64,000 nucleotides of DNA from Poseidonocella sedimentorum (lineage in GTDB: Bacteria > Pseudomonadota > Alphaproteobacteria > Rhodobacterales > Rhodobacteraceae): the NCBI RefSeq assembly GCF_900116005.1, contig NZ_FOYI01000002.1:62001-126000 (forward strand). The letters run 5' to 3'. Under the pieces are notes generated by a model that made no database searches, was not told the DNA's origin, and worked only from the letters and a program-made list of their open reading frames with translations. A program made the translations under genes and the position numbers. Of the stretch, positions 13,244 to 28,253 are shown in pieces (within the stretch, counting starts at the first letter, position 1; each line of letters opens with the position of its first letter).

Positions 13244-14171
13244 CCTCCTCGCCGTTTTGCTGGCGCTGACCCCTGCCGCACCCGCTGCGGCAGGGGATTT
13301 TGCCTTCGTGACCAACCAGAATAGCAGCGAGCTGAGCGTCATTGACCTTGAGGCGCGCCGCGAGTTGCGCCGGGTCCCCGTGCCGGGCAACCCGGCGGGC
13401 GTCGCCGTTGGCGCGGGCGGCGCGGTTTACACCGTCTCGCCCGAGAGCAAGACCGTCCGGCGCTTCGACGCCGGGGCCCTCGCGGCCGAGACGGTGCTGG
13501 ACGGCGGGCCCATCGGCATCGCGGTCGATGGTCACACCGACCGGGTCTTCGTCTCCGACTGGTACAACGCGCGGATCTGGGTGCTGGACGGCGAGAGCCT
13601 CGCGCTGGAAGCCACGCTGGAGACGGGCAGCGCGCCCGCCGGCCTCGCCATCCATGGCCGCCGCCTCGCAGCGGCGGATCGCGATGCCAACCAGGTCTCG
13701 TTTTTCGATATCGACAGTCTCGCCCCCCTTGGTGCCGCCTTGGTGGGCGAGCGGCCCTTCGGCATCGGCTTCGCCCCGGACGGGGTCCTCTGGGCCTGCA
13801 ACGTGGGCAGCGATGACGTGACCCTGATCGATCCCGAGACCCTCAGGGCGCTTGCCACGGTGCCCGTGGGCGACCGGCCCTATGGCGTTGCCTTCGCCGC
13901 CGGGCGCGCCTTCGTTTCGAACCAGTATGCCGATACGGTCAGCGTGATCGACCTAGAAACCCGCGCGCCCATCGCTGTGCTCGATGTCGGCGAATACCCT
14001 GAGGGGATCGACGTGACCCGAGACAAGCGCACCGTGGTTGTGGCAAACTGGTTTTCCAACAGCATCAGCCTGATCGACGCTGCCGGGCTGGAGGTGGTGG
14101 GCGAGATCGACACCGGCGACGGCCCGCGCGCCTTTGGCAAATTCGTGACCACCGGGGAGGGATGGGAATGA
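13209..14171 (+). CDS. Second YVTN-type beta-propeller of the xoxF locus
   Basis: 320 residues. After an Ala-Pro-rich export signal come repeats such as FAFVTNQNSSELSVIDLE, RVFVSDWYNARIWVLDGE, RAFVSNQYADTVSVIDLE and TVVVANWFSNSISLIDAA. It is distinct in sequence from the propeller at 9875. The start is uncertain: ATG 13209 has AGGGG 4 bases upstream, while an in-frame TTG at 13227 would give a shorter, cleaner signal peptide. It overlaps the SRPBCC gene upstream and runs almost directly into the SoxYZ-like gene. It is likely periplasmic and protein-binding. Confidence 0.85.
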   Translation: MPWPPGLARATDLLAVLLALTPAAPAAAGDFAFVTNQNSSELSVIDLEARRELRRVPVPGNPAGVAVGAGGAVYTVSPESKTVRRFDAGALAAETVLDGGPIGIAVDGHTDRVFVSDWYNARIWVLDGESLALEATLETGSAPAGLAIHGRRLAAADRDANQVSFFDIDSLAPLGAALVGERPFGIGFAPDGVLWACNVGSDDVTLIDPETLRALATVPVGDRPYGVAFAAGRAFVSNQYADTVSVIDLETRAPIAVLDVGEYPEGIDVTRDKRTVVVANWFSNSISLIDAAGLEVVGEIDTGDGPRAFGKFVTTGEGWE

Positions 14172-14983
14172 AGATCGTGACCTTGGCCGGGGCGGCGCTG
14201 CTCTGCCTCGCCACGCCGCTCGGCGCAGAGACCGAGCCAAGCTGGACCTACATCGCCCATGACCTTTACGGCACGCGCGCGCTTCAGGACGGCGCGCATC
14301 TCATCAGCATCGACACCCCCTACCGCACGCAGGATGACGCGCGCACGCGCGTCGCCGCGCAGGTGGTCGCGCCGGAGGGGCTGAAACTGGGAAAGGTGTC
14401 GGTCATCCTCGATGAAAACCCGATGCCGGTCTCGGCGGTGTTTTCGCTCGATGTGCCGCAGGAGCGGCTCTTTTTCGACGTGACCTTGCGGTTCAACGGC
14501 GGCACGCCGCTGCACGTTGTGGCCGAGACGACCGACGGGCAGCTTTTTGTCGCCGAAACCTTCGTCAAGACCTCGGGCAAGGGCGCCTGTGCCGCGCCGC
14601 CGGGGACCGATCCGATTGAGGCGATGGCAACGCTCGGGAACATGGATCTGTCGCTCTCGCCGCTGACTGACGGGTCCGCCGCCGGGCGCCTCGCCGCGCT
14701 CTCGGCCCGGCAGCGGCAACTGGATGTGGATATCTCCCACCCCAGCCATTCGGGCATGCAGATGGATCAGATCTCGCTGCTCTTCATCCCGATGCGCTAT
14801 GTCGAGACGCTTGAAATCGACCTCGATGGCGCCGGCTATGTGGATGTGACCGGGAGCATTTCGCTCAGCGAAAACCCCGCGCTGTCGCTCTCCGTTCCCG
14901 CGCAGACCGAGCGCGCCGATGTCACGATGATCGACACCGACGGCACGCGCACGACCGCGACGACGCGCCGCGCCGGTTACTGA
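14168..14983 (+). CDS. Quinoprotein dehydrogenase-associated SoxYZ-like fused carrier (copy 1)
   Basis: 271 residues. After a signal peptide (1-21) there is a SoxY-like half ending at a flexible TSGKGACAAPP around Cys141, then a SoxZ-like half (about 155-271) with HPSHSGMQMD and SISLSENPA. In SoxYZ the sulfur-carrying Cys is at the SoxY C terminus. Here the fusion places it on an internal linker. Family members occur with PQQ dehydrogenases and may carry a thiol-bound group in a relay, which is unproven. The ATG at 14168 was chosen over 14162 because GGGGAGG sits about 7 bases before it. The end overlaps the convergent Cys/Trp-motif gene by 7 bases. Confidence 0.88.
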   Translation: MKIVTLAGAALLCLATPLGAETEPSWTYIAHDLYGTRALQDGAHLISIDTPYRTQDDARTRVAAQVVAPEGLKLGKVSVILDENPMPVSAVFSLDVPQERLFFDVTLRFNGGTPLHVVAETTDGQLFVAETFVKTSGKGACAAPPGTDPIEAMATLGNMDLSLSPLTDGSAAGRLAALSARQRQLDVDISHPSHSGMQMDQISLLFIPMRYVETLEIDLDGAGYVDVTGSISLSENPALSLSVPAQTERADVTMIDTDGTRTTATTRRAGY

Positions 14984-15510
14984 TCGAAGGGCTCGAGCGG
15001 CTCTGTGGGGAAGTCGTGGAAGCTCCACGCGTCGGTCCCGCCGGGGAACCAGTAGACCGTATCGTAGCCGTAGGCGCGGGCCCGTTTCGCCGCGTTCCAT
15101 GACATCCAGCAGTCTTCGAGGCAGAAGATCAGGACCGGGTGTGACAGCGCGCCGCCGGTCACAGCAGCCAATCCGGCCTTGAAATAGGCGTGGGTCTCAT
15201 CGGCCAGCGCGCCATAGCCCACGTTTGGAAGCCAGATCGCGCCGGGGATCGACTGGCGGGGTTTCTCGCGCCAGATCGTCCCTTCGGGCAGGTTCGCCGG
15301 TTTGGGTGCGCGAGGCAGAACGTCGATGAAAGCCACCTCTCCCGAGCGCCAGAGCTCATGGGCCGCTGGCGCATCGACAACCACCGCGCCCGCGAGCGTC
15401 GCGGGGACCGGGGCGCGGTAGGCCTCCATCCGGAACGCGTCCGGCTCGGGCACCTGCGCGAGAAGCGCGACAGGCCAGCAGCACACAAGCGCCGCCGCCA
15501 GCCAGCGCAT
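14977..15510 (-). CDS. PQQ-dependent catabolism-associated Cys/Trp-motif (rhodanese-like) protein
   Basis: 177 residues with a signal peptide to about 19. The rhodanese-type fold is recognisable: AFIDVLP, then RQSIPGAIWLPNVG, then VLIFCLEDCWMSWNA (Cys130, Cys134, Trp135), and WFPGGTDAW. The family is named for a CXXCW motif, but here the cysteines are separated by three residues (C-LED-C-W). It is expected to be a periplasmic redox or sulfur-handling protein associated with PQQ alcohol dehydrogenases. It follows xoxJ directly (stop and start share one base at 15510). Confidence 0.88.
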   Translation of the reverse strand: MRWLAAALVCCWPVALLAQVPEPDAFRMEAYRAPVPATLAGAVVVDAPAAHELWRSGEVAFIDVLPRAPKPANLPEGTIWREKPRQSIPGAIWLPNVGYGALADETHAYFKAGLAAVTGGALSHPVLIFCLEDCWMSWNAAKRARAYGYDTVYWFPGGTDAWSFHDFPTEPLEPFDQ

Positions 15511-16352
15511 CAGTTCTGCGCGCCCAAGAGGCTTGTCCCCATGTCCGACAGGAGCGGGACGCCCGCCTCGCGCAGGATCTCGTTGATCTCACCCTGATTG
15601 CGGCGGATGAGCGAGTTGAGCTTGCGCTGCCAGACCTTTTCGCCCGTGCGCACGCCCATGGTGATCCGAAAGAACAGCCGCGGCGGCTGGGTTTCCTCGA
15701 TCAGCGGCGTAACCTTGAAGCCGGGGTAGTCGGCCTTGACCAGCGGCCCGCCAATCGGCCCCCAGAGGATGGCCGCGTCGATCTCGCCGGTCTGCAGATC
15801 ATCGAGCATGTCGAGCGCGGGGGATTCGACCCGCCGATCGACGAAGAGGTTGTAGGCCTTGGCCTTGCCGATCAGCCCGTTGCGCGCCATGTGCGTCGCC
15901 GGCGGGCTACCCGCGACGATGCCGATCCGAAGCCCCTGAAGCGCCGGGTCCGACAGCGTCGTGATCCCGGCAAGCGGGCCGTCTTCGGGCACGATCAGCG
16001 CGTAGGACGAGGTGAAATAATGGTTGGTGTTGAGCACCAGCTCATGGCCCTGCGCGTAGCCGATCACCACGTCGCAGCGGTTCTCGCGCAGGGTGCGGCG
16101 GATGAACCCGGTGGCCATGGGAAACCAGGTGTATTCCAGCGGCAGGTCGAGCTTTTCGGCAAAGAGCTCGGCGATGCGGTTCTCGTAGCCCCCCGCGCCA
16201 TCGTCGGAGAGCGGGTAATTGGCCGGATCGGCACAAACGCGGAAGGCCGTCTTGGACACCAGATCGGAGGTCTGGGCCACCGCGGGCGCCGGTAGGAGAA
16301 GCGACGCGGCCACTGCCAGCGCCGCTCCGATGCCGATCACATCACGGATCAT
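15510..16352 (-). CDS. xoxJ: XoxJ, quinoprotein dehydrogenase-associated periplasmic binding-like protein
   Basis: 280 residues with a signal peptide ending at AVAQ. The type II periplasmic-binding fold shows in AFRVCADPANYPLS, RCDVVIGYAQGHELVLNT, GLRIGIVAGSPPATHMARNG and DAAILWGPIGGPLVK. MxaJ/XoxJ proteins are dedicated partners of the PQQ methanol dehydrogenases, probably in activation or assembly of XoxF, not in transport. It follows the copper protein gene by 16 bases and precedes the Cys/Trp-motif gene in the same message. Confidence 0.92.
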   Translation of the reverse strand: MIRDVIGIGAALAVAASLLLPAPAVAQTSDLVSKTAFRVCADPANYPLSDDGAGGYENRIAELFAEKLDLPLEYTWFPMATGFIRRTLRENRCDVVIGYAQGHELVLNTNHYFTSSYALIVPEDGPLAGITTLSDPALQGLRIGIVAGSPPATHMARNGLIGKAKAYNLFVDRRVESPALDMLDDLQTGEIDAAILWGPIGGPLVKADYPGFKVTPLIEETQPPRLFFRITMGVRTGEKVWQRKLNSLIRRNQGEINEILREAGVPLLSDMGTSLLGAQN

Positions 16353-16368
16353 CTGATCACCGGCCGGA

Positions 16369-16854
16369 TCACGATTCCGGTGCGCCGATCATGCCGTTTT
16401 TCTCCATGTCGACCCGCAGCTTCTTCAAAAGCCCGCGCGCCGGGAGATATTCCTTCTGCTCTTCGGTCACCGCCATGTAGCTGTCGATGATCTCGCCGGG
16501 GTTTTCCGGCTCGCCGACAACGATGAACCCGCCCATGCGGTTGCCCCAGTGCGGCGTGCATTTGTAGGAGACGATCCCCACTGTATCGAAGGTGACGGTG
16601 ATGTTGTCGCCCAACTCCGACATGATCTTTTCCTGCCCCTCGGGCACCATCGGATCAAGCGTCTCGACATTGTGGCTCGGCATCCGCTCGAAGCTGACGG
16701 TGTCGCCCGGCTGGATGTAGAGGAACATCGGGTCGAATTTGACGCCCTTGGCCTGGATTACGTGGTTTTCGGCGACGGCGGCCGTGCCGAGCGCGAAGGT
16801 CATGGCCGTAGCAACAGCAACCTGAGATACGCGGCGAGGGAATTCGAATTTCAT
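16369..16854 (-). CDS. Pseudoazurin-like blue copper protein in the xoxG position
   Basis: 161 residues with a signal peptide to about 28. The type 1 copper ligands are all present: His61 (SHNVET), then Cys99, His102 and Met107 in YKCTPHWGNRM. A C-terminal helical extension (about 118-161) matches pseudoazurins. It should be a periplasmic one-electron carrier. It lies between xoxF and xoxJ, where most methylotrophs encode the c-type cytochrome XoxG (no Cys-x-x-Cys-His cytochrome is encoded nearby), so it is the likely electron acceptor of this XoxF. That role is inferred from position. Confidence 0.9.
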   Translation of the reverse strand: MKFEFPRRVSQVAVATAMTFALGTAAVAENHVIQAKGVKFDPMFLYIQPGDTVSFERMPSHNVETLDPMVPEGQEKIMSELGDNITVTFDTVGIVSYKCTPHWGNRMGGFIVVGEPENPGEIIDSYMAVTEEQKEYLPARGLLKKLRVDMEKNGMIGAPES

Positions 16855-16889
16855 ACCGAGGAGGTCCTTTCTCGTGCCTTGTCGTGGAT

Positions 16890-16916
16890 GTGCCGGCGCG
16901 GTGTCCGCACCGGCAC
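16890..16916. promoter_or_regulatory. GC-rich stem-loop between xoxF and the copper protein gene
   Basis: GTGCCGG (16890-16896) pairs with CCGGCAC (16910-16916). After one mismatch GCGG (16898-16901) pairs with CCGC (16905-16908) around a TGT loop. No T-run follows on the xoxF strand, so a strong intrinsic terminator is unlikely. More plausibly it is an RNA 3'-end protector or partial terminator that lets xoxF be expressed more highly than the downstream genes. Confidence 0.5.
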
Positions 16917-16939
16917 GTTTCAGTTGAGTATCACGTCCC

Positions 16940-18739
16940 TCAGTCGGGGATCGCGAAGACCGTCAGCTGACCACCGAGGTTGGTGTAGTCGCTCAGGGCC
17001 GCATAGCCGCCCACGGCGCCCAGACCGTCGTTCGGGTTGGTCAGGCCGGCCGCGAGGCCGATCCCGGCCCAGCCGCCAACGCCCGACAGGATGCCGACAA
17101 ACTGTTTGCCTTCATGGGTGTAGGTCATGACGTTGCCGATGATCCCGGAGGGCGTCTTGAAGCGGTAAAGCTCTTCACCCGTCTCGGCATCGATTGCCTT
17201 CAGGTAGCCTTCGAGCGTGCCGTAGAAGACGACGTCGCCCGCGGTTGCCAAAGCACCCGACCACACGGAGAACTGCTCGGGGATGGACCATTTGATCTCA
17301 CCCGCGATGTTGTCCCATGCGATGAAGTTACCCATGCCGCCGTGGCTGTCCGGTGCGGGGTACATCGACAGTGTCGCGCCCACGTAGGGCTGACCTGCGG
17401 TGTAAGCCACGCGGAACGGCTCGTAGTCCATGCAGACGTGGTTCGTCGGCACGTAGAAGAGCTCGGTCTTCGGCGAGTAGGAGGCCGGTTGTTGGTCCTT
17501 GGTGCCAAGCGCCGCCGGGCAGATGCCGGTCGAGTTCACGTCTTCGCCGTTTTGCTCGGTCGAATACTCGGCCACCACGGCCGGACGGCCATAGGTGTCG
17601 GACTCCGGATCCATGTCGACGCCGGTGGTCCAGTTGACGACCGGGTCATACTTCTCGGCCACGAGAAGCTCACCGCTCACGCGGTCCATGGTGTAGGCAA
17701 GGCCGTTCCGGTCGAAGTGGGTGAGAAGCTTGCGCATCTCGCCATCAATTTCCTGCTCCGTGAGGATCATTTCGTTGATGCCGTCATAATCCCACTCGTC
17801 GTGCGGGGTCATCTGGTAGAACCACTTGGCAACGCCGGTGTCGGCATCGCGGGCCATGATCGTCATGGACCAACGGTTGTCGCCCGGGCGCTGTCCGGGG
17901 TTCCATGTCGAGGGGTTGCCCGAGCCGTAGTAGACGAGGTTTTCTTCGGCATCGTAGGAATACCAGCCCCAGGTCGTGCCGCCGCCGATCATCCACTGAT
18001 CACCTTCCCAGGTGTTCACGCCGGAGTTCTCGCCCACGGGCTCGCCGAGATGGGTGGTGTTTTCGGGATCAACGAGGATGTCCTCATCGGGGCCCATGGA
18101 ATAGGCGCGCCAGGCCATGGAGCCGTCTTCCATGTTGTAGGCCGTGACCGAGCCGCGCACACCGAATTCGCCGCCCGAGATGCCGACGATGATCTTGTCG
18201 TTGACCGGAAGCACGGTGGCGGTGTTGGTTTCGCCCTTGGCCGGATCGCCGTTCACGACGCTCCATTCCACTTCGCCGGTCTCTGCATCGAGCGCGACGA
18301 CCGTGGTATCGGCCTGGTGCAGGAAGATCTTGCCTTCCGCATAGGCGACGCCCCGGTTCACCGTGTCGCAGCACATCACGGGAATCACGTTCGGATCCTG
18401 CTTGGGCTCGTATTTCCAGATGATGCGACCATCATCGTTCAGGTCGAGCGCGTAAACGATGTTCGGGAACGGCGTGTGCAGGTACATCGTGTCGCCAATC
18501 ACCAGCGGCGAGCCCTCGTGCCCGCGCAGAACGCCGGTCGAGAAGGTCCATGCGACCTGAAGATCGCCCACGTTGTCCTTGTTGATCTGGTCCAGCTGCG
18601 AGTAGCGCTGGTTCTTGTAGTCGCCGGTCTGGATGACCCACTGATCGGGGTTGTCGATCTCGGCTTGCAGGCCCTCGTTGGCCGATGCAGACACCGCAGC
18701 GATCGCCAAAGCGGACGTTAGTGCGAGTAGCTTTTTCAT
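16940..18739 (-). CDS. xoxF: XoxF lanthanide-dependent PQQ methanol dehydrogenase
   Basis: 599 residues, normal for XoxF, with a signal peptide to about 20. The vicinal disulfide pair is Cys123-Cys124 ([10 protein letters not shown]), metal ligands are Glu191 and Asn275, and HDEWDYDG carries catalytic Asp317 and the additional Asp319 that distinguishes lanthanide enzymes from calcium MxaF (Ala there). It oxidises methanol (often to formaldehyde or formate) in the periplasm with PQQ. The ATG at 18739 starts a standard signal peptide; an upstream in-frame start at 18778 would add 13 residues ahead of it. It is followed by a pseudoazurin-like gene and xoxJ, and preceded by adhC-fghA, which clear formaldehyde. 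Confidence 0.97.
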
Positions 18740-18796
18740 ATCTCTCTCCCTTGTGGTGAGACTTGTCACCTGACCCACCGGGCTGAATCCGGGGGA

Positions 18797-18907
18797 TCAA
18801 TCCATCGTCCGCTCAATCTCTCCTCCGGAGCGGACAAGTCGTCTGTCGTGAAGCGTCCTCCTTTTTCTCGTTCCGATCGCCGCGCGGGCGATCTGTGCTG
18901 CTGTCAC
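18797..18907 (-). other. Possible 36-codon upstream reading frame in the xoxF leader
   Basis: A GTG at 18907, 6 bases after GGAGGAG, opens a frame of 36 sense codons that ends with TGA at 18799-18797, 57 bases before the xoxF ATG. The peptide would be Arg-rich (TRKRRTLHDRRLVR) with no signal. It spans both leader hairpins, so its translation would change which one forms. A leader peptide or plain untranslated leader are both possible. Nothing but the ribosome site and frame supports it. Confidence 0.25.
18807..18835 (-). promoter_or_regulatory. Leader hairpin B upstream of xoxF with Shine-Dalgarno-like loop
   Basis: On the minus strand GTCCGCTC pairs with GAGCGGAC (8 base pairs) around a 13-base loop that contains GGAGGAG. 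It lies about 70 bases before the xoxF ATG. The same loop sequence occurs in hairpin A. Confidence 0.5.
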
Positions 18908-18932
18908 CGGGTCTCCTCCGAACCGGTGACAG
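18901..18932 (-). promoter_or_regulatory. Leader hairpin A upstream of xoxF with Shine-Dalgarno-like loop
   Basis: CTGTCACCGG (18901-18910) and CCGGTGACAG (18923-18932) form a perfect 10-base inverted repeat around a 12-base spacer that reads GGAGGAG on the minus strand. If transcribed it would make a strong stem with an exposed ribosome-site-like loop. As DNA it could also be a regulator operator, for instance for the LuxR regulator at 28259. Confidence 0.5.
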
Positions 18933-19032
18933 GCGTTGTGTCTCCGCCGCCTGGTCGGCCCCGCCTTGCGGGCGCCCGGCTTTGGTGAGTCGGGCCGGCG
19001 CTGCATACCAAGATATCCCGCCGCCGCCGCCT

Positions 19033-19052
19033 AGTCGTTACGACTTAAGTCG
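19033..19052. promoter_or_regulatory. Overlapping palindromes at the fghA stop, upstream of xoxF
   Basis: AGTCGTTACGACT (19033-19045, 6-base arms around one base) overlaps CGACTTAAGTCG (19041-19052, perfect 12-base palindrome), so three half-sites of the form AGTCG/CGACT sit in 20 bases. The run spans the fghA stop codon and is about 300 bases from the xoxF start. It may be a binding site for the xoxF regulator or a coincidence in the coding end. Confidence 0.25.
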
Positions 19053-19871
19053 CTCTGCGTGCCAGGCGACATGGTCGCCGGCGAAGGTCGAGACGAAGTA
19101 GTAGCTGTGATCGTAGCCCGCCTGCATCCGGAACTGTCCCGGCTGGCGCCGCGCGGTCATCGCGCCGGCCAGTGCCTCGGGCTTGAGCAAGTCGAGGAAC
19201 TGGTCATCCGCGCCCTGATCGATCAGCATATCTCCCTTCCAGCCCAGCTCCTCCAGAAGCAGGGTCGCATCGTATTGCGCCCAATTGGCCTCATCGTCGC
19301 CGAGGTAGGCCGAGAGCTGCTTGCGCCCCCAGTCGGACCGCGTCGGGTTGGCGATCGGGGCGAAGGCCGAGACCGAGGCAAAGAGATCGGGGTTCTTCAT
19401 CGCGATCGTCAGCGCGCCATGCCCGCCCATGGAATGGCCGGTGATCCCGTGGGCCACATCGCCCGGCAGCAGATCCGCCACCACGCCGCGCAGATCCGAG
19501 ACGATGTAGTCATACATCTTGAAATGCGGCGCCCAGGGCTCGCGCGTGGCGTTCACGTAGAACCCCGCACCCATGCCCAGATCATAGGCCTCGTCATCCG
19601 CAACGCCCTCGCCGCGCGGCGATGTGTCGGGGAAAACCACCGCGATCCCGTGATCGGCCGCGAATTTCTGAAAGCCGCCCTTGGTCATCGCATTCTCATG
19701 CGTGCAGGTGAGGCCCGAGAGATACCACAGGACCGGGACCGGCCCATCCGCCGCCTGGGGCGGCGCATAGACGGCGAAGGTCATGTCGCATCCGCAGGCG
19801 TCCGACCCGTGGCTGTACACGGATTGGACCCCGCCGAAACTGCGGTTTTCCGAGATGACCTCCAGAGGCAT
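19038..19871 (-). CDS. fghA: S-formylglutathione hydrolase
   Basis: 277 residues, the normal length of the esterase-D family. LSGLTCTHEN (51-60) is the characteristic oxyanion region, GHSMGG centres on nucleophile Ser147, and DQGADDQF and GYDHSYYF near the C terminus carry the catalytic Asp and His. It hydrolyses S-formylglutathione to formate and glutathione in the cytoplasm. Its start overlaps the adhC stop (TGATG), so the two formaldehyde-clearing steps are coupled, and xoxF follows on the same strand. Confidence 0.97.
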   Translation of the reverse strand: MPLEVISENRSFGGVQSVYSHGSDACGCDMTFAVYAPPQAADGPVPVLWYLSGLTCTHENAMTKGGFQKFAADHGIAVVFPDTSPRGEGVADDEAYDLGMGAGFYVNATREPWAPHFKMYDYIVSDLRGVVADLLPGDVAHGITGHSMGGHGALTIAMKNPDLFASVSAFAPIANPTRSDWGRKQLSAYLGDDEANWAQYDATLLLEELGWKGDMLIDQGADDQFLDLLKPEALAGAMTARRQPGQFRMQAGYDHSYYFVSTFAGDHVAWHAERLKS

Positions 19872-20998
19872 CAGAATTCCACCACGGCGCGAATGGATTT
19901 TCCGGCATGCATCAGCTCGAAGCCTTCGTTGATGTCCTCAAGCTTGAGCTTGTGGGTGATCATCGAATCGATCTCGATCTTGCCGTCCATGTACCACTCG
20001 ACCATTTTCGGAACATCCGTGCGGCCCTTGGCGCCCCCGAAGGCCGTGCCCTTCCAGACGCGGCCGGTGACGAGCTGGAACGGGCGGGTGGAGATTTCCG
20101 CCCCCGCCGGCGCCACGCCGATGATGACCGAGACGCCCCAGCCGCGGTGCGAGCATTCCAGCGCGTCGCGCATGACCTTGACGTTGCCGGTCGCGTCGAA
20201 GCTGTAGTCCACGCCGCCGATCTGGTCGAAATCGGTCTTGGTGATGTCGACGATCGCCTGAACGGTGTTCTCGACCTTGGACGGGTTGACGAAGTGAGTC
20301 ATGCCGAACTTCTTGGCCATCTCCGCCTTGTCGTCGTTGAGATCCACGCCGATGATCTTGTCGGCGCCCGCCATGCGGAGCCCCTGGATCACGTTGAGGC
20401 CGATCCCGCCGAGGCCGAAGACCGCCGCGGTCGCGCCGATCTCGACACCGGCGGTGTTGATCACCGCGCCGATCCCGGTGGTGACGCCGCATCCGATGTA
20501 GCAGATCTTGTCGAAAGGCGCGTCCTCGCGCACCTTGGCCAGAGCAATCTCGGGCATCACCGTGTGATTGGCGAAGGTCGAGCAGCCCATGTAGTGATAG
20601 ATCGGCGTGCCATCGAGCATCTTGAAGCGCGTGGTGCCGTCGGGCATCAGGCCCTGGCCCTGGGTGTTGCGGATCGCGGTGCAAAGATTGGTCTTGCCCG
20701 AGAGGCAGGACGCGCACTCGCGGCATTCCGGCGTGTAGAGCGGGATAACGTGATCGCCCGGCTTGAGCGTGGTGACACCTTCGCCCACCTCAACCACGAC
20801 GCCTGCGCCCTCATGGCCGAGGATCGACGGAAAGAGACCTTCCGGATCATCGCCCGAGCGCGTGAATTCATCTGTGTGGCAAATACCCGTTGCCTTGATC
20901 TCGACCAGGACCTCTCCCTTTTTGGGCCCTTCGAGTTCGACTTCCATAACCTCCAAAGGCTTTCCAGCCTCCAGAGCAACCGCTGCTCTCGTACGCAC
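19871..20998 (-). CDS. adhC: S-(hydroxymethyl)glutathione dehydrogenase (class III alcohol dehydrogenase)
   Basis: 375 residues from a GTG at 20998, the standard length. Catalytic zinc ligands are Cys40 and His62-Glu63 in GHEGAG, the structural zinc is held by Cys92, Cys95, Cys98 and Cys106, and [11 protein letters not shown] is the NAD site. It oxidises the formaldehyde-glutathione adduct to S-formylglutathione. It is also called flhA in Paracoccus. GGAGG lies 8 bases before GTG 20998; an earlier GTG at 21016 lacks such spacing and would add six residues not typical of the family. Confidence 0.96.
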
Positions 20999-21148
20999 TG
21001 CGCAATCCTCCGTCACCTGCCATACAATGGCACATCAGGGGTAGCGTGTGCGATGGTCGACAAACAACTGAGACCTTGGTTGGTATTGAGACAAAGGGGA
21101 TGGACCTGCGATTCCATGGGCCTAGATTGGAATACGGGAGGATTGATC

Positions 21149-22953: not shown

Positions 22954-23760
22954 ATGAGATGCGTTTTGGCCGGAGCGGCCGCTCTGGCGCTCGCCGCGGG
23001 AGCGGTGTTCGCGGAGGATCTGAAAAACCCGCTGACCGAAAGCGAGAGCTGGACAGACCTCAAATTCGATGTTGTCGGCGATGTCGCCCTGCGCGACGGC
23101 GGCCCGCTCTTCGAGGTCGAGGCCCCCTACCGCGCGCATGATGCCGCCACCGTTCCGATCCTGATCTCCCAAACCGACGCGGCCCAGACCATCGACCGCG
23201 CCACCGTGGTGATCGACGAAAATCCCGCGCCCGTCGCGGCGGAGTTCACCTTCGGGCCGGCCATGGCGCCGCTCGACATGGAATTGCGCGTGCGGGTGAA
23301 CCAGTATTCCAACGTGCGCGTCATCGCCGAGACGGACGCGGGCGCCTTCATGGCCGGTCGCTTCGTCAAGGCGTCCGGCGGCTGTTCGGCCCCGGCGACG
23401 CGCGATCCGTCGCTCGCCCTGGCCAGCATGGGCGAGATGCAATTGCGCCATTTCACCCCCGAGCCGCAACTCTCGCGCCCCCGCCGCGAGGCCCAGATCA
23501 TGATCCGCCACCCGAACTACTCGGGGCTCCAGCGCGACCAGATCACCCAGCTTTTCATCACCGCGCATTTCATCGACGCGCTCGAAGTCTGGCAGGGCGA
23601 GGAGATGCTCTTTACCATGACCGGCGGCATTTCGATCAGCGAAAACCCGGTGTTCCGCTTTGCCTACACCGACAACGGTGCGCCGGATTTCCGCATCCGC
23701 GCCCATGATACGGACGGCAACGTCTTCGAGCGGATCCTGCCCAAGACCGGCGAGATCTGA
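22954..23760 (+). CDS. Quinoprotein dehydrogenase-associated SoxYZ-like fused carrier (copy 2)
   Basis: 268 residues with a signal peptide to about 20. A SoxY-like half ends at VKASGGCSAPATRD (Cys144), closer to the canonical SoxY GGC tail than copy 1, and a SoxZ-like half follows with HPNYSGLQRDQITQ and GGISISENPVFRF. It shares the fused architecture of the carrier at 14168 but is clearly diverged, so this is a pair of paralogues, not a recent duplication. It shares a 150-base divergent promoter region with the SoxH-like hydrolase. Confidence 0.88.
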   Translation: MRCVLAGAAALALAAGAVFAEDLKNPLTESESWTDLKFDVVGDVALRDGGPLFEVEAPYRAHDAATVPILISQTDAAQTIDRATVVIDENPAPVAAEFTFGPAMAPLDMELRVRVNQYSNVRVIAETDAGAFMAGRFVKASGGCSAPATRDPSLALASMGEMQLRHFTPEPQLSRPRREAQIMIRHPNYSGLQRDQITQLFITAHFIDALEVWQGEEMLFTMTGGISISENPVFRFAYTDNGAPDFRIRAHDTDGNVFERILPKTGEI

Positions 23761-24846: not shown

Positions 24847-27096
24847 TCATGCGATACTTTGGTCTGAGCCCGCGCGCCGCCGCTCCGGCTCGAACCGGGT
24901 CTTGCGGGCGATGAGGCCGCGCAGATGGGTAAGGTTGACCGGCTTGGCCAGCACGCTGAAATCCTGTTGTTCGGCGCTTTCCATCAGATCGGCGGTCCGG
25001 TTGGCGGTGATGACCACCGCAGGCACCTCGCAGCCCGTCATCTCGCGGATCGTCTCGATGGCGTGGATGCCGGTGTCGTGGCCATCGAGCTGAAAATCCG
25101 CAAGAATGATATCCGGCGCCATGCCCATATCGCGCACCACCTCGACGGCCTCGGCGGTCGATCGGGTGGAGAAGGCCCCCGCGCCCCAGCTTTCGAGCTT
25201 GCTGACCATCGCGGCCAGCACGTCGGGGTCATTCTCGACCACCAGCGCCAGCAGGTTCATCCGCGTATCCGCGCTCACCACCGGCCCGATATCGGGCACC
25301 GGCGCTTCCATCTTGGGCGCCACGGTCTTCATCTCGATGGAAAACACCGAGCCGACCCCGGGCTTGGACCGCACGCCCACCTTGTGGCCCAGATGCCGGC
25401 AGGTCCGATCCACGATCGAGAGCCCAAGCCCCATGCCCGAACCGGGCGGGACGTTTTCCGCACGGGTGAACTCGTCGAAAATGCGGGTCTGGTCCTGATG
25501 AGAGATGCCGATGCCCGTGTCCCAGACCTCCAGCACAACGCGATCCCCACGGCGGCGGCAGCCGAGAAGGACGCGGCCCTTTTCGGTGTACTGGATGGCA
25601 TTGACCACGAGGTTCTGGATTGAACGCATGAGATAGCGCGGATCGCTGTGGACCCAGACATTGCAGGGCACGACGTCGAGCTGCACCCCTTTCTCCCGGG
25701 CCATCACATCCTGATCCTGCGCCACGCTGCGCATCAGCGGCCCGAGGCAGAAATCGGTCGAGGCGAGCCCGGTCCCGGTGCTCTCCAGCCGCGAGATATC
25801 GAGCAGCGCGTGCAGCAAAGTCTCGATCGAGGCAAAGGAGCCTTCGAGCCGGCCAACCAGATCGGCGAGGGGCGTCTCGCGCGCGGAATCGGCAAGGGTG
25901 GAGATCAGCAGCTTGGCGGCGTTCACCGGCTGCAACAGATCATGGCTCGCCGCCGCGAGGAACCGCGTCTTGGACGAGACCGCGGCCTCGGCGGCCTCCT
26001 TGGCGACGCGCAATTCCTCCTCCACCAGCGCCTGTTTGTGCGACTGTTCGGTGAGCTGCCGGTTCACCTCGGTCAGCGCCGATGTCCGCTCCTCCACGCG
26101 CCGCTCCAGAAGCTCGGTGCTGCGCGCCTCCAGCGTGGTGTCGGCAATGTCGACGAGGAACCCCTGATCCGGCAGCAAGTGCAGGTGGATATCGAGAACG
26201 CGGCCCGCCACGTGGCGGATCCGGGCGCGGAATCGGCCAATCTCGCGCAGGCGCTGCCACCAGTCCCATGCCCCCTCCGCGCCGCTGTCGCCCCCGCCAT
26301 AGTGGCGCTTGATGAAGGCGAGGATGTCGTCGAACCGCGTGCCCTCCTTGAGCAGCGGCGCGGGCAGGCCGAGCAGATCGCTGAAGCGCTGATTGTGGAG
26401 CATGAGCGTGCCGTCGCTGGAAAACGTGCCGACCCCGAGGCTCATGTGGTCCAGCGCCGATTGCAGGTAGTGGGCCTGCATGTCGATCAGGTGGTCTTTC
26501 TCCAGCCGGTTCTTGCGGACGATGTCCGTGATGTCGGTCTGGACGATCACGATGTTGTCCGAGGTGGTCTGCTGCTGGCTGAACTGGTACCAGCGATCGC
26601 CGGCCAACTCGATCATCACGTTCGAGAGCGCCCGCCCCCTGTCGCCCGCGCGCAGCTCCGTGAGCGCCTGCCGCAGGCCGCGGTCCCGGCTGACGAGGTA
26701 GTCGCTCCGGGCGACCGAGGCGACGTAGTCCTCCACGGGCAATCCCGGCGCGATCCTGCCGGAAATGTCCGGCAACAGATTGCGAAACAGATCGTTGAAG
26801 ACCTGCAGCCGCCCGTCCTCGAAGAGCGCAAACCCGCCCTCCATGACCGAAAGCGCGTCTTCCAGCGTCTTGCGGCTGCGCTCCTTGTCGAAGCGCAGTT
26901 CGGCCAGTTCATGCGAGGCCCGTTCCAGATCGCGCGTCTTGGCCCAGACCTGCCCCTGCAACGAGATCGCCGACTGGAACGCGGCATAGGCCGAGTTGCC
27001 CACGTCATGCTCGCGCGTCGCGCGGCGGATGAGCGCGTCGATGATCTTGGCCTGCTTGGCGACCTGAACCTCGAGCGGATCCTCCGGATCGATCAA
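24847..27096 (-). CDS. Hybrid histidine kinase with two PAS-like domains (NahK/ErcS'-like)
   Basis: 749 residues from a TTG at 27096, which shares four bases with the FIST-gene stop and follows GGAGGGAG. Layout: helical N terminus (1-75), PAS-like regions about 78-190 and 212-320, coiled coil 325-375, H-box FLAAASHDLLQP (His385), N-box NLVVNAIQYTEKG (about 496-508), DTGIGI and GSGMGLGLS, then a receiver domain (about 614-740) with phospho-acceptor Asp667 in ILADFQLDG. There is no membrane segment, so it is cytoplasmic. It is probably partnered by the FIST protein and the LuxR regulator. Confidence 0.88.
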   Translation of the reverse strand: MIDPEDPLEVQVAKQAKIIDALIRRATREHDVGNSAYAAFQSAISLQGQVWAKTRDLERASHELAELRFDKERSRKTLEDALSVMEGGFALFEDGRLQVFNDLFRNLLPDISGRIAPGLPVEDYVASVARSDYLVSRDRGLRQALTELRAGDRGRALSNVMIELAGDRWYQFSQQQTTSDNIVIVQTDITDIVRKNRLEKDHLIDMQAHYLQSALDHMSLGVGTFSSDGTLMLHNQRFSDLLGLPAPLLKEGTRFDDILAFIKRHYGGGDSGAEGAWDWWQRLREIGRFRARIRHVAGRVLDIHLHLLPDQGFLVDIADTTLEARSTELLERRVEERTSALTEVNRQLTEQSHKQALVEEELRVAKEAAEAAVSSKTRFLAAASHDLLQPVNAAKLLISTLADSARETPLADLVGRLEGSFASIETLLHALLDISRLESTGTGLASTDFCLGPLMRSVAQDQDVMAREKGVQLDVVPCNVWVHSDPRYLMRSIQNLVVNAIQYTEKGRVLLGCRRRGDRVVLEVWDTGIGISHQDQTRIFDEFTRAENVPPGSGMGLGLSIVDRTCRHLGHKVGVRSKPGVGSVFSIEMKTVAPKMEAPVPDIGPVVSADTRMNLLALVVENDPDVLAAMVSKLESWGAGAFSTRSTAEAVEVVRDMGMAPDIILADFQLDGHDTGIHAIETIREMTGCEVPAVVITANRTADLMESAEQQDFSVLAKPVNLTHLRGLIARKTRFEPERRRAGSDQSIA

Positions 27097-28253
27097 TGCA
27101 GCTCCCTCCGTCTCGGCCGGAAGAAGGCCACACCCACGAAAGTCTGGTTCACATGCACGCCGTGATGCTGCTCGCCGTAGGTGTTGAACCCCAGAACGCG
27201 CGCGTTGCGCAAGATCTCGGAGACCGCCGCGCCCATGCCCTTTTGCTCGATCTCCAGCCGCCGCAGCACGCAGTCGAACCCGAGAATGAACTCCGGCGCG
27301 ACCCCGCGCCCATCGTGCAGATCGAGCGCCTCTTCCATCGTCCGCAGGATTTCCTTGCCGGTGCCGAGCGTCATCAGAAGCCCGTCGTCGATCGCCGACA
27401 GGAAGGACAGCGTCTGGCCCTCGAGCACCTCCTGGATCGCGCGGACGTGGTAGGCGTCGTTGTTGCGCACCAGAAGCGGGTTTTCGGCGAAGACCAGCGG
27501 CGAGAGGTCTTCGAGCGCGCAGCCCACAAGCCGGGCGTATTCCTCCGCCGCCGGACTGCCGTTGATCTCCTCGGCGATGCGCCGATCGGCGATGGCCCTG
27601 GTGATGACGAGCTGCTTTTCGGTGGGCAGGAAATGATCGAAGCCGATGCCGACGAAATCGAGATCGGTCTCCAGCAGCAGGACAAGCGCCGCGTCGCGGG
27701 TGAAGCGGCCGTTGTGCAAGACGAAAGTCTCGCGATACTCCAGCCCGTCGCCCGCCGAGCCGCCGAAGACCGGGATATCCGCCAGCCCCGTCACCAGCGC
27801 CGACATCAGCAGATCCTCCTTGCGCGAGAGCCCGTCGGCGAAGGTCAACGCCAACCGGTTCCAGTTGGCGGTCTTCTGGAATTTCGCATCGAGCCGCCGC
27901 ACATCCTCCGAGATCGTCTCGATCGAAAGCGGGTTGAGCGGCGCGATGATGCGGGACGCACAACGGAAATGCGCCTTGGGGAAGGACAGCGCGAGGAGCG
28001 TGTTGGTCGCATAGCCCTCGGGCGTGATCTGCCCCGCGGTGGTGCAGCCGAAGACCGACACCCCCGACAGATGCGCCGAAACAGCCGCCTCGAACGCAGG
28101 GCCGACAAGGCTTTCGGGGATGAAGATCAGGACGAAACAGGCTTCATTGAGGCAAAGCTGCGGGACAAGCTCCGCCACCGCCTGCGCAGGCGCCTCGGCC
28201 CCCGACAGCGCCACATGCACGACCGGCGGATTGACCTCCGAACCGATGTTCAT
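27093..28253 (-). CDS. FIST-domain sensor protein (NosP-like)
   Basis: 386 residues, full length for FIST_N plus FIST_C. Recognisable segments include GVSVFGCTTAGQITPEGYATN in the N half, then ADIPVFGGSAGDGLEYRETFVLHNG and GFDCVLRRLEIEQKG in the C half. In Pseudomonas and others the FIST protein NosP binds haem, senses nitric oxide and controls a co-encoded hybrid kinase. Here the gene overlaps the kinase start by four bases and lies 5 bases after the response regulator gene. Haem binding or ligand cannot be read from sequence, so it may sense something else, such as a formaldehyde product. Confidence 0.88.
   Translation of the reverse strand: MNIGSEVNPPVVHVALSGAEAPAQAVAELVPQLCLNEACFVLIFIPESLVGPAFEAAVSAHLSGVSVFGCTTAGQITPEGYATNTLLALSFPKAHFRCASRIIAPLNPLSIETISEDVRRLDAKFQKTANWNRLALTFADGLSRKEDLLMSALVTGLADIPVFGGSAGDGLEYRETFVLHNGRFTRDAALVLLLETDLDFVGIGFDHFLPTEKQLVITRAIADRRIAEEINGSPAAEEYARLVGCALEDLSPLVFAENPLLVRNNDAYHVRAIQEVLEGQTLSFLSAIDDGLLMTLGTGKEILRTMEEALDLHDGRGVAPEFILGFDCVLRRLEIEQKGMGAAVSEILRNARVLGFNTYGEQHHGVHVNQTFVGVAFFRPRRRELH

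What the first reader, a model, noticed from the sequence alone, without database searches (positions are those of the whole stretch)
16369..18739. Blue copper protein in place of cytochrome XoxG behind a lanthanide-type XoxF
xoxF (with Asp319 two residues after catalytic Asp317) is followed directly by a pseudoazurin-like gene with all four type 1 copper ligands, then xoxJ. Known xox operons have a c-type cytochrome (xoxG) in that slot, and no Cys-x-x-Cys-His protein is encoded anywhere near. The simplest reading is that this XoxF passes electrons to copper and not to haem, which would change the coupling to the respiratory or denitrification chain and make the system need both lanthanide and copper.
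Basis: partly seen in the sequence, partly recalled or inferred. Interest (0 to 1): 0.78.

Follow-up and report, generated by a model that had tools for sequence, protein, structure and literature searches.

The report
Copper protein replaces XoxG beside XoxF
In one bacterium a small blue copper protein gene sits exactly where its relatives keep the gene for the haem cytochrome that takes electrons from the rare-earth methanol enzyme, so this enzyme probably hands its electrons to copper instead of haem.

Summary
A standard xox cluster (FDH-FGH-xoxF5-[slot]-xoxJ-CXXCW) has one gene exchanged: the slot holds a 161-aa type 1 copper protein (ligands His61, Cys99, His102, Met107) instead of XoxG. 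No ORF of 60 aa or more in the 64 kb has CxxCH. The 99.86%-complete genome has one XoxF, one Copper-bind match and no XoxG by profile (best E 0.5, with a stop). The only other genome held of the genus has the same cluster with xoxG in the slot and no Copper-bind match. Of 80 named XoxF relatives, 78 reach xoxJ and all 78 have XoxG between; 0 of 80 show a cupredoxin in the fetched stretch. Of 50 XoxF-positive genomes among 394 of the family, two lack XoxG: this one and an 82%-complete genome with xoxF cut at a contig end. XoxF is conserved.

Best reading: XoxG was replaced by a cupredoxin that XoxF reduces directly. Electron transfer and metal loading are untested. The denitrification link is not supported. 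It is pseudoazurin-like, below that family's cut-off. The papers searched showed no such arrangement.

The parts
16940..18739 (-). xoxF5, lanthanide-type PQQ methanol dehydrogenase, 599 aa, D317/D319, Cys123-Cys124; the only XoxF match in the genome
   Evidence: named homologue annotated XoxF5 at 88.9%
16369..16854 (-). cupredoxin (pseudoazurin-like), 161 aa, type 1 Cu ligands H61, C99, H102, M107, in the xoxG slot
   Evidence: PF00127 E 7.8e-11; PDB pseudoazurins; the four ligands conserved in the 37 compared homologues; signal peptide read by eye, not predicted
15510..16352 (-). xoxJ, periplasmic binding protein; starts 16 bp after the cupredoxin stop
   Evidence: TIGR03871 287.8 bits
14977..15510 (-). 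PQQ_CXXCW rhodanese-like protein
   Evidence: TIGR03865
16890..16916 (-). GC-rich hairpin in the 85-bp gap between xoxF and the cupredoxin gene (7-bp stem, 13-nt loop, read by eye)
   Evidence: sequence; 61 of 80 stretches after xoxF (78 relatives, the sister, this genome) have a stem of 7 bp or more with loop up to 12, against 5.3% of shuffles; this genome itself was not among the 61
18740..19037 (-). gap between FGH and xoxF; the sister genome G071 has a c550/c2-like cytochrome gene here, absent in this genome
   Evidence: a homologue within 600 bp upstream of xoxF is found in 33 of 74 relatives
19038..19871 (-). S-formylglutathione hydrolase
   Evidence: TIGR02821
19871..21016 (-). S-(hydroxymethyl)glutathione dehydrogenase
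   Evidence: TIGR02818
21765..22802 (-). quinoprotein relay system zinc metallohydrolase 2
   Evidence: TIGR04559
22954..23760 (+). quinoprotein dehydrogenase-associated SoxYZ-like carrier (first of two)
   Evidence: TIGR04557 270.9 bits
14162..14983 (+). quinoprotein dehydrogenase-associated SoxYZ-like carrier (second)
   Evidence: TIGR04557 158.4 bits
13209..14171 (+). beta-propeller repeat protein of the quinoprotein cluster
   Evidence: TIGR02276; match in L113
12704..13243 (+). SRPBCC-type protein
   Evidence: PF10604; match in L113
10869..12053 (-). ABC substrate-binding protein of the PQQ-dependent alcohol dehydrogenase system
   Evidence: TIGR03863
9875..10972 (-). PQQ-dependent catabolism-associated beta-propeller protein
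   Evidence: TIGR03866
5949..6806 (-). ABC transporter ATPase of the PQQ-dependent alcohol dehydrogenase system
   Evidence: TIGR03864 345.5 bits
5155..5952 (-). alcohol ABC transporter permease (PedC-type)
   Evidence: TIGR03861 426.4 bits

Best explanation
In this lineage the c-type cytochrome XoxG was lost and a cupredoxin gene took its exact place between xoxF5 and xoxJ. XoxF oxidises methanol with PQQ and, most likely, a lanthanide (motif shown, loading inferred). The cupredoxin, exported to the periplasm (inferred), takes electrons singly from reduced PQQ at its type 1 copper site (inferred) and passes them to c-type cytochrome domains of the oxidase branch, such as CcoP of a cbb3 oxidase, a membrane-anchored c-type cytochrome or a CtaC-cytochrome fusion, all encoded in the genome (presence shown, transfer inferred). 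XoxJ and the rest of the cluster are unchanged.
For: The same cluster, gene for gene, in the only other genome held of the genus, with xoxG in the slot. XoxG between xoxF and xoxJ in all 78 of 80 named relatives whose contig reaches xoxJ; cupredoxin in 0 of 80 fetched stretches. In 394 family genomes, XoxF (E<=1e-180) in 50 and XoxG in 48; XoxF without XoxG only in this genome and in G008, 82% complete with xoxF cut at a contig end. Of the 50, G083 has only a 54% PQQ dehydrogenase as XoxF match, so 49 have a close XoxF and 47 of these have XoxG next to it (gap between matches 71-678 bp, median 112). In this genome the XoxG profile finds nothing better than E 0.5 with a stop, all 38 candidates scored. 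The only Copper-bind match of the genome is this one and the sister has none. XoxF is constrained: 1 change at columns conserved in 97.5% or more (82 sequences, range 0-11), ordinary branch length, inside a clade of XoxG-bearing relatives. Spacing is kept: 85 bp before the cupredoxin, 84 bp before xoxG in the sister. All four Cu ligands are intact.
Against: No biochemical data. The screen at 97.5% shows no change in XoxF that would mark a new docking surface. The cupredoxin has no detected ortholog (best 41-48% over parts of its length), so selection on it could not be measured. Other c-type cytochromes exist (19 PF00034 match places), including domains 51-57% identical to the sister's xox-linked c2-like cytochrome. 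In the XoxF tree this genome pairs with Thalassococcus profundi (L004), not with its genus mate G071, with weak support deeper down, so when and in which lineage the swap happened is open. Single-sequence structure prediction failed (mean pLDDT 43.7).
Confidence: 0.7

Rival explanations
1. XoxF now reduces another c-type cytochrome of the genome, and the cupredoxin is a second carrier downstream of it, in place of the c2-like cytochrome that the sister genome encodes upstream of xoxF.
For: 19 PF00034 match places in the genome; the sister's upstream cytochrome is absent here and its nearest matches are domains in a Sox-type cluster, 51% over 128 aa and 57% over 105 aa. Recalled, from no call: azurin is thought to act after cytochrome cL in some methylotrophs.
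Against: The copper gene sits in the xoxG position, not in the upstream position; XoxG is kept beside XoxF in 78 of 78 relatives that show xoxJ, which argues for a dedicated acceptor; the upstream cytochrome has no homologue within 600 bp in 41 of 74 relatives, 40 of which show XoxG.
Confidence: 0.17
2. XoxF no longer serves methanol respiration (for instance it acts as a sensor) and the cupredoxin is a copper-handling protein that happened to insert in the operon.
For: The best plasmid match by E-value, in Methylophaga, lies about 4 kb from a copper-resistance gene.
Against: XoxF, XoxJ, FGH and FDH are intact and match the sister's at 82-93%; XoxF is conserved; spacing is kept; the insert coincides with loss of xoxG.
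Confidence: 0.08
3. Assembly error or misplacement of a foreign piece.
For: The gene has lower GC (59.5%) than the 15 other window genes measured (62.2-71.0%) and the lowest GC3, 0.821 against 0.826-0.873; only one genome shows it.
Against: It lies inside a 512-kb contig between genes that match the sister's cluster on both sides; no xoxG elsewhere; contamination 0.27%; GC3 differs only slightly.
Confidence: 0.02
4. It is a denitrification pseudoazurin that only shares a promoter with xoxF.
For: Closest solved structures are pseudoazurins; P. denitrificans pseudoazurin feeds nitrite, NO and N2O reductases (PMC12848317, passage).
Against: No NorB among the COX1-family matches; below the pseudoazurin cut-off; loop CTPHWGNRM differs from the CxPHxxxGM of all 37 compared homologues.
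Confidence: 0.03

Closest known systems
xoxF5-xoxG-xoxJ cluster of roseobacters and Rhodobacter sphaeroides (strain La 6, PMC5934484, passages; Sagittula plasmid NZ_CP021914.1, annotation)
   Same: Same genes and order around xoxF5, including FDH, FGH, xoxJ, CXXCW protein and SoxYZ-like carrier (Sagittula)
   Different: Cupredoxin instead of XoxG; no c-type cytochrome upstream of xoxF
XoxG4 of gammaproteobacterial methanotrophs (PMC5874918, and PMC5723320, passages)
   Same: A non-homologous acceptor can serve XoxF: XoxG4 has no sequence homology to the other XoxG types and is reduced directly by XoxF
   Different: XoxG4 is still a c-type cytochrome and is not encoded near xoxF
Methylamine dehydrogenase - amicyanin (PMC9728263, passages), and its azurin variant in M. 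flagellatus (PMC2680597, passage)
   Same: A periplasmic quinoprotein (TTQ cofactor, recalled) reduces a type 1 copper protein of its own gene cluster; one copper acceptor is replaced by another there
   Different: Different enzyme and cofactor; copper for copper, not copper for haem
Quinoproteins that use azurin (general statement in PMC12124388, passage; type II quinohaem alcohol dehydrogenases, recalled)
   Same: Delivery of electrons from quinoproteins to a cupredoxin has been stated
   Different: Not XoxF; by recall those enzymes pass the electron through their own haem first
PQQ dehydrogenases of heterotrophic marine Thaumarchaeota (PMC7300363, passages)
   Same: Authors hypothesise electron flow to the quinone pool or to blue copper proteins
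   Different: Archaeal, divergent, lacking the Cys-Cys pair, in a lineage without cytochrome c; no operon pairing in the passages read
Pseudoazurin (TIGR02375; PDB 5ztd, 1bqk)
   Same: Type 1 ligand set and spacing CxxHxxxxM
   Different: Scores 69 bits against 109.85; lacks the N-terminal MLN motif; WGNRMGG loop where most homologues have xxxGMV
Cupredoxin VSX76_RS01470 on a Methylophaga thalassica plasmid (L154)
   Same: Shares the short N-terminus and the PHWGxxMGG loop; 41% identity over 123 columns
   Different: Not beside xoxF; near a copper-resistance gene

Membership tests
XoxF5 lanthanide methanol dehydrogenase | PQQ methanol/ethanol dehydrogenase family match and closest solved relatives XoxF | tested here: met
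   TIGR03075 763.7 bits against 480.05; 6oc5 1081.7 bits
XoxF5 lanthanide methanol dehydrogenase | Extra Asp two residues after the catalytic Asp (DYD) and adjacent Cys-Cys | tested here: met
   D317, D319, C123-C124
XoxF5 lanthanide methanol dehydrogenase | Lanthanide-dependent methanol oxidation | not testable with these tools
   needs enzyme assay
xoxFGJ operon | xoxJ beside xoxF | tested here: met
   TIGR03871, one gene away
xoxFGJ operon | c-type cytochrome XoxG encoded next to xoxF | tested here: not met
   cupredoxin in the slot
XoxG cytochrome | CxxCH haem site in the slot protein | tested here: not met
   no CxxCH
Type 1 (blue) copper protein | His, Cys, His, Met ligand set in a cupredoxin domain | tested here: met
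   H61, C99, H102, M107; PF00127 over cut-off
Type 1 (blue) copper protein | Binds copper, blue absorption | not testable with these tools
   needs protein
Pseudoazurin (TIGR02375) | Score over curated cut-off of 109.85 bits | tested here: not met
   69 bits
Dedicated electron acceptor of XoxF | Direct reduction by XoxF with methanol | not testable with these tools
   no assay; genetic linkage only

The most novel reading that the evidence does not exclude
A lanthanide-dependent PQQ methanol dehydrogenase that hands its electrons directly to a type 1 copper protein, which arose by in-place replacement of the c-type cytochrome XoxG: a natural swap of haem for copper at the first electron-transfer step of methanol oxidation, seen between two genomes of one genus.
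Probability: 0.68. Interest if true: 0.85.

Novelty: new variant of a known kind. Interest (0 to 1): 0.78.

Why it matters
XoxG stands beside a close XoxF in 47 of 49 family genomes examined, so a clean swap to copper in one of them is a ready-made natural experiment: two genomes of one genus, same cluster, same enzyme, different metal at the first electron-transfer step. If true, it would show that the cytochrome is not strictly needed for a lanthanide methanol dehydrogenase, give a two-protein system for asking how reduced PQQ is reoxidised, tie lanthanide and copper demand together in a methanol oxidiser, and offer a haem-free acceptor for assays and bioelectrodes. It also warns that surveys that use xoxG as a marker can miss working systems.

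Tried and rejected
One search used a wrong pattern (Cys-x-Cys-His spacing, not Cys-x-x-Cys-His) and is not used; the haem-motif test rests (window) and on profile searches.

Surface charge was tried as a sign that the cupredoxin imitates XoxG: it is acidic (pI 4.7), but the 37 compared cupredoxins range from charge -13.3 to +6.0, so this says nothing. A search for unusual XoxF changes found only Y547F: no sign of a reshaped docking face, no sign of decay. Remnants of xoxG or of the upstream cytochrome in the two gaps: none by tblastn. The xoxF-cupredoxin gap does not align with the sister's xoxF-xoxG gap beyond chance (150 of 1000 shuffles as good), while the 120 bp before xoxF does (1 of 1000). 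Loss of the upstream cytochrome was first taken as part of the swap; it has no homologue within 600 bp in 41 of 74 relatives, so it is not special. The single-sequence fold was too poor to use, so no fold search was run. Phages by protein search and viral contigs by one exact pattern gave nothing; PHROGs gave a plastocyanin family at E 4.8e-10. Sigma-70 promoter scan: none found.

The cupredoxin was searched in 394 family genomes, 385 class genomes (both drawn from larger groups), plasmids, phages only. Neighbours were read for 37 of the 71 distinct other cupredoxin places; for the family I also read the places side by side: 11 other genomes have both genes, on one contig in two (G035, G205), 348 kb or more apart. 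One search scored at most 3 and at most 8 candidates a genome. PF00034 is a weak detector of XoxG (the sister's true XoxG scored below its cut-off), so absence of XoxG rests on the A1 profile. One search printed 77 of 78 by an ORF-start rule; with a profile gives 78 of 78. The stem search missed this genome's own hairpin, found by eye.

Not-in-print statement rests; several lists were cut (10 of 325, 20 of 75, 20 of 100, 10 of 50). Of the 7 papers I read passages of 6; PMC9953142 was seen in the listing only. The library holds open-licence PMC papers; Featherston et al. 2019 on XoxG and XoxJ was not held.

Full report
What is there. On the minus strand of the window run S-(hydroxymethyl)glutathione dehydrogenase (19871-21016), S-formylglutathione hydrolase (19038-19871), xoxF (16940-18739), a cupredoxin (16369-16854), xoxJ (15510-16352) and a CXXCW protein (14977-15510); SoxYZ-like carriers, beta-propeller proteins, a zinc metallohydrolase and PQQ-system ABC transporter genes flank them. 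XoxF has D317/D319 and Cys123-Cys124 and its best solved match is a lanthanide-dependent XoxF, 6oc5. The cupredoxin matches Copper-bind (E 7.8e-11) and solved pseudoazurins, and has the full type 1 ligand set H61, C99, H102, M107. It falls below the pseudoazurin equivalog cut-off (69 against 109.85 bits). No ORF of 60 aa or more in the 64 kb carries CxxCH.

Is it real and how unusual. The genome has one XoxF, one Copper-bind match and no XoxG: a 20-sequence profile (A1) finds the sister genome's XoxG at E 3.6e-88 and in this genome only an E 0.5 fragment with a stop, with all 38 candidates scored. The sister, G071, the only other genome held for the genus, carries the same cluster gene for gene (xoxF 89.5%, xoxJ 82%), with xoxG where the copper gene lies here, a c550/c2-like cytochrome gene upstream of xoxF, and no Copper-bind match. 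Of 80 named XoxF relatives (the 80 best of at least 592), 78 reach xoxJ and all 78 have XoxG in between; L024 and L038 end before it; 0 of 80 have a cupredoxin hit in the stretch fetched. Of 394 family genomes from 393 genera, 50 have XoxF at E<=1e-180 and 48 have XoxG at E<=1e-15; the XoxF genomes without XoxG are this one and G008, 82% complete with xoxF cut at the contig end. G083's only XoxF match is a 54% PQQ dehydrogenase on another contig than its XoxG; the other 47 have XoxG next to XoxF. The cupredoxin has no ortholog in those 394 genomes (58 with a match at E<=1e-12 counting this one; the best others 41-46% over part of its length) or in 385 genomes of the class (9 at E<=1e-15 counting this one). 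The 37 loci fetched of 71 distinct other places have no xoxF or xoxJ within 1.5 kb; in the family, no other cupredoxin place lies near a XoxF place (read side by side).

What happened. XoxF of this genome lies in a clade of relatives of which those that reach xoxJ have XoxG (local support 0.91), pairing with Thalassococcus profundi (0.97) rather than with its genus mate; its branch is ordinary (0.076 against a median of 0.075) and it has one change at columns conserved in 97.5% or more, 82 sequences, range 0-11. So xoxG was most likely lost and the copper gene gained in a lineage whose enzyme stayed under constraint; the tree does not date the event. The gap after xoxF is 85 bp here and 84 bp in the sister; the two gaps do not align beyond chance, whereas the 120 bp before xoxF do. 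A GC-rich stem is common after xoxF (61 of 80 stretches against 5.3% of shuffles); this genome has one with a 13-nt loop, outside the script's limit of 12, seen by eye. The copper gene ends 16 bp before xoxJ. Its GC (59.5%) and GC3 (0.821) are the lowest of 16 window genes measured, GC3 only slightly. Source: the best plasmid match by E-value, a Methylophaga cupredoxin, shares its short N-terminus and PHWGxxMGG loop at 41% identity and lies near a copper-resistance gene; gain by transfer is an inference.

How it works. Shown: position, ligands, loss of XoxG, conservation of XoxF. Inferred: export, copper binding, reduction by XoxF, delivery to oxidases. Candidate receivers present: CcoP (TIGR00782, over cut-off) beside ccoN on contig C11, a CtaC-cytochrome fusion beside a ctaD on C22, a membrane-anchored c-type cytochrome, and a c550-like cytochrome in a Sox-type cluster with SoxX (CtaC and membrane anchor by reading of the sequence). 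The three COX1-family matches are two CtaD and one CcoN, no NorB, so aerobic respiration is the likely sink; NirK, NirS and NosZ were not searched.

What is known. XoxG is described as the acceptor beside xoxF5 in the roseobacter La 6, with a similar cluster in R. sphaeroides (PMC5934484, passages). XoxG types are partly unrelated, XoxG3 in alphaproteobacteria, XoxG4 in gammaproteobacteria, the latter not near xoxF (PMC5723320, passages), and XoxG4 is reduced directly by XoxF (PMC5874918, passages); both papers call them cytochromes. Copper proteins accept electrons from methylamine dehydrogenase (amicyanin; PMC9728263, passages), and azurin replaces amicyanin in the M. flagellatus mau cluster (PMC2680597, passage). 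Delivery from quinoproteins to azurin is stated in general terms (PMC12124388, passage), and blue copper proteins were proposed as possible acceptors of PQQ dehydrogenases in marine Thaumarchaeota (PMC7300363, passages). So a PQQ enzyme feeding a cupredoxin is not new as an idea; a XoxF with a cupredoxin in the xoxG slot did not appear in my searches (several lists cut, most papers seen in the listing only).

Verdict. A real and, in the genomes searched, unique replacement; a new variant of the xox system. The mechanism is likely but unproven.

Noticed in passing
L154:5986-6429 (Methylophaga thalassica plasmid NZ_CP143310.1): A cupredoxin of the same apparent subfamily (short N-terminus, PHWGAGMGG loop), also below the pseudoazurin cut-off, near a copper-resistance gene in a methylotroph genus.
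   Followed up: partly
L018:9897-10898, L057:2626-3651, L068:9871-10968: The CxxCH ORF between xoxF and xoxJ is 333-365 aa, much longer than in most loci; perhaps an extended or fused XoxG.
   Followed up: no
window 14162-14983 and 22954-23760: Two quinoprotein-associated SoxYZ-like carriers flank the xox cluster on both sides, in the sister genome too; their role is unknown.
   Followed up: no
window 24847-27963: Hybrid sensor kinase/response regulator near the cluster, resembling NahK/ErcS in its C-terminal part (below the cut-offs), with a match at the same side in the sister genome; a possible regulator.
   Followed up: no
G083 (C60:26603-28384, C74:4345-4839): A family genome with a XoxG on one contig and only a 54% PQQ dehydrogenase on another at the E<=1e-180 limit.
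   Followed up: no
L003: MAG with 91% identical XoxF that has XoxG but no homologue of the upstream cytochrome within 600 bp, so that gene comes and goes independently of XoxG.
   Followed up: partly
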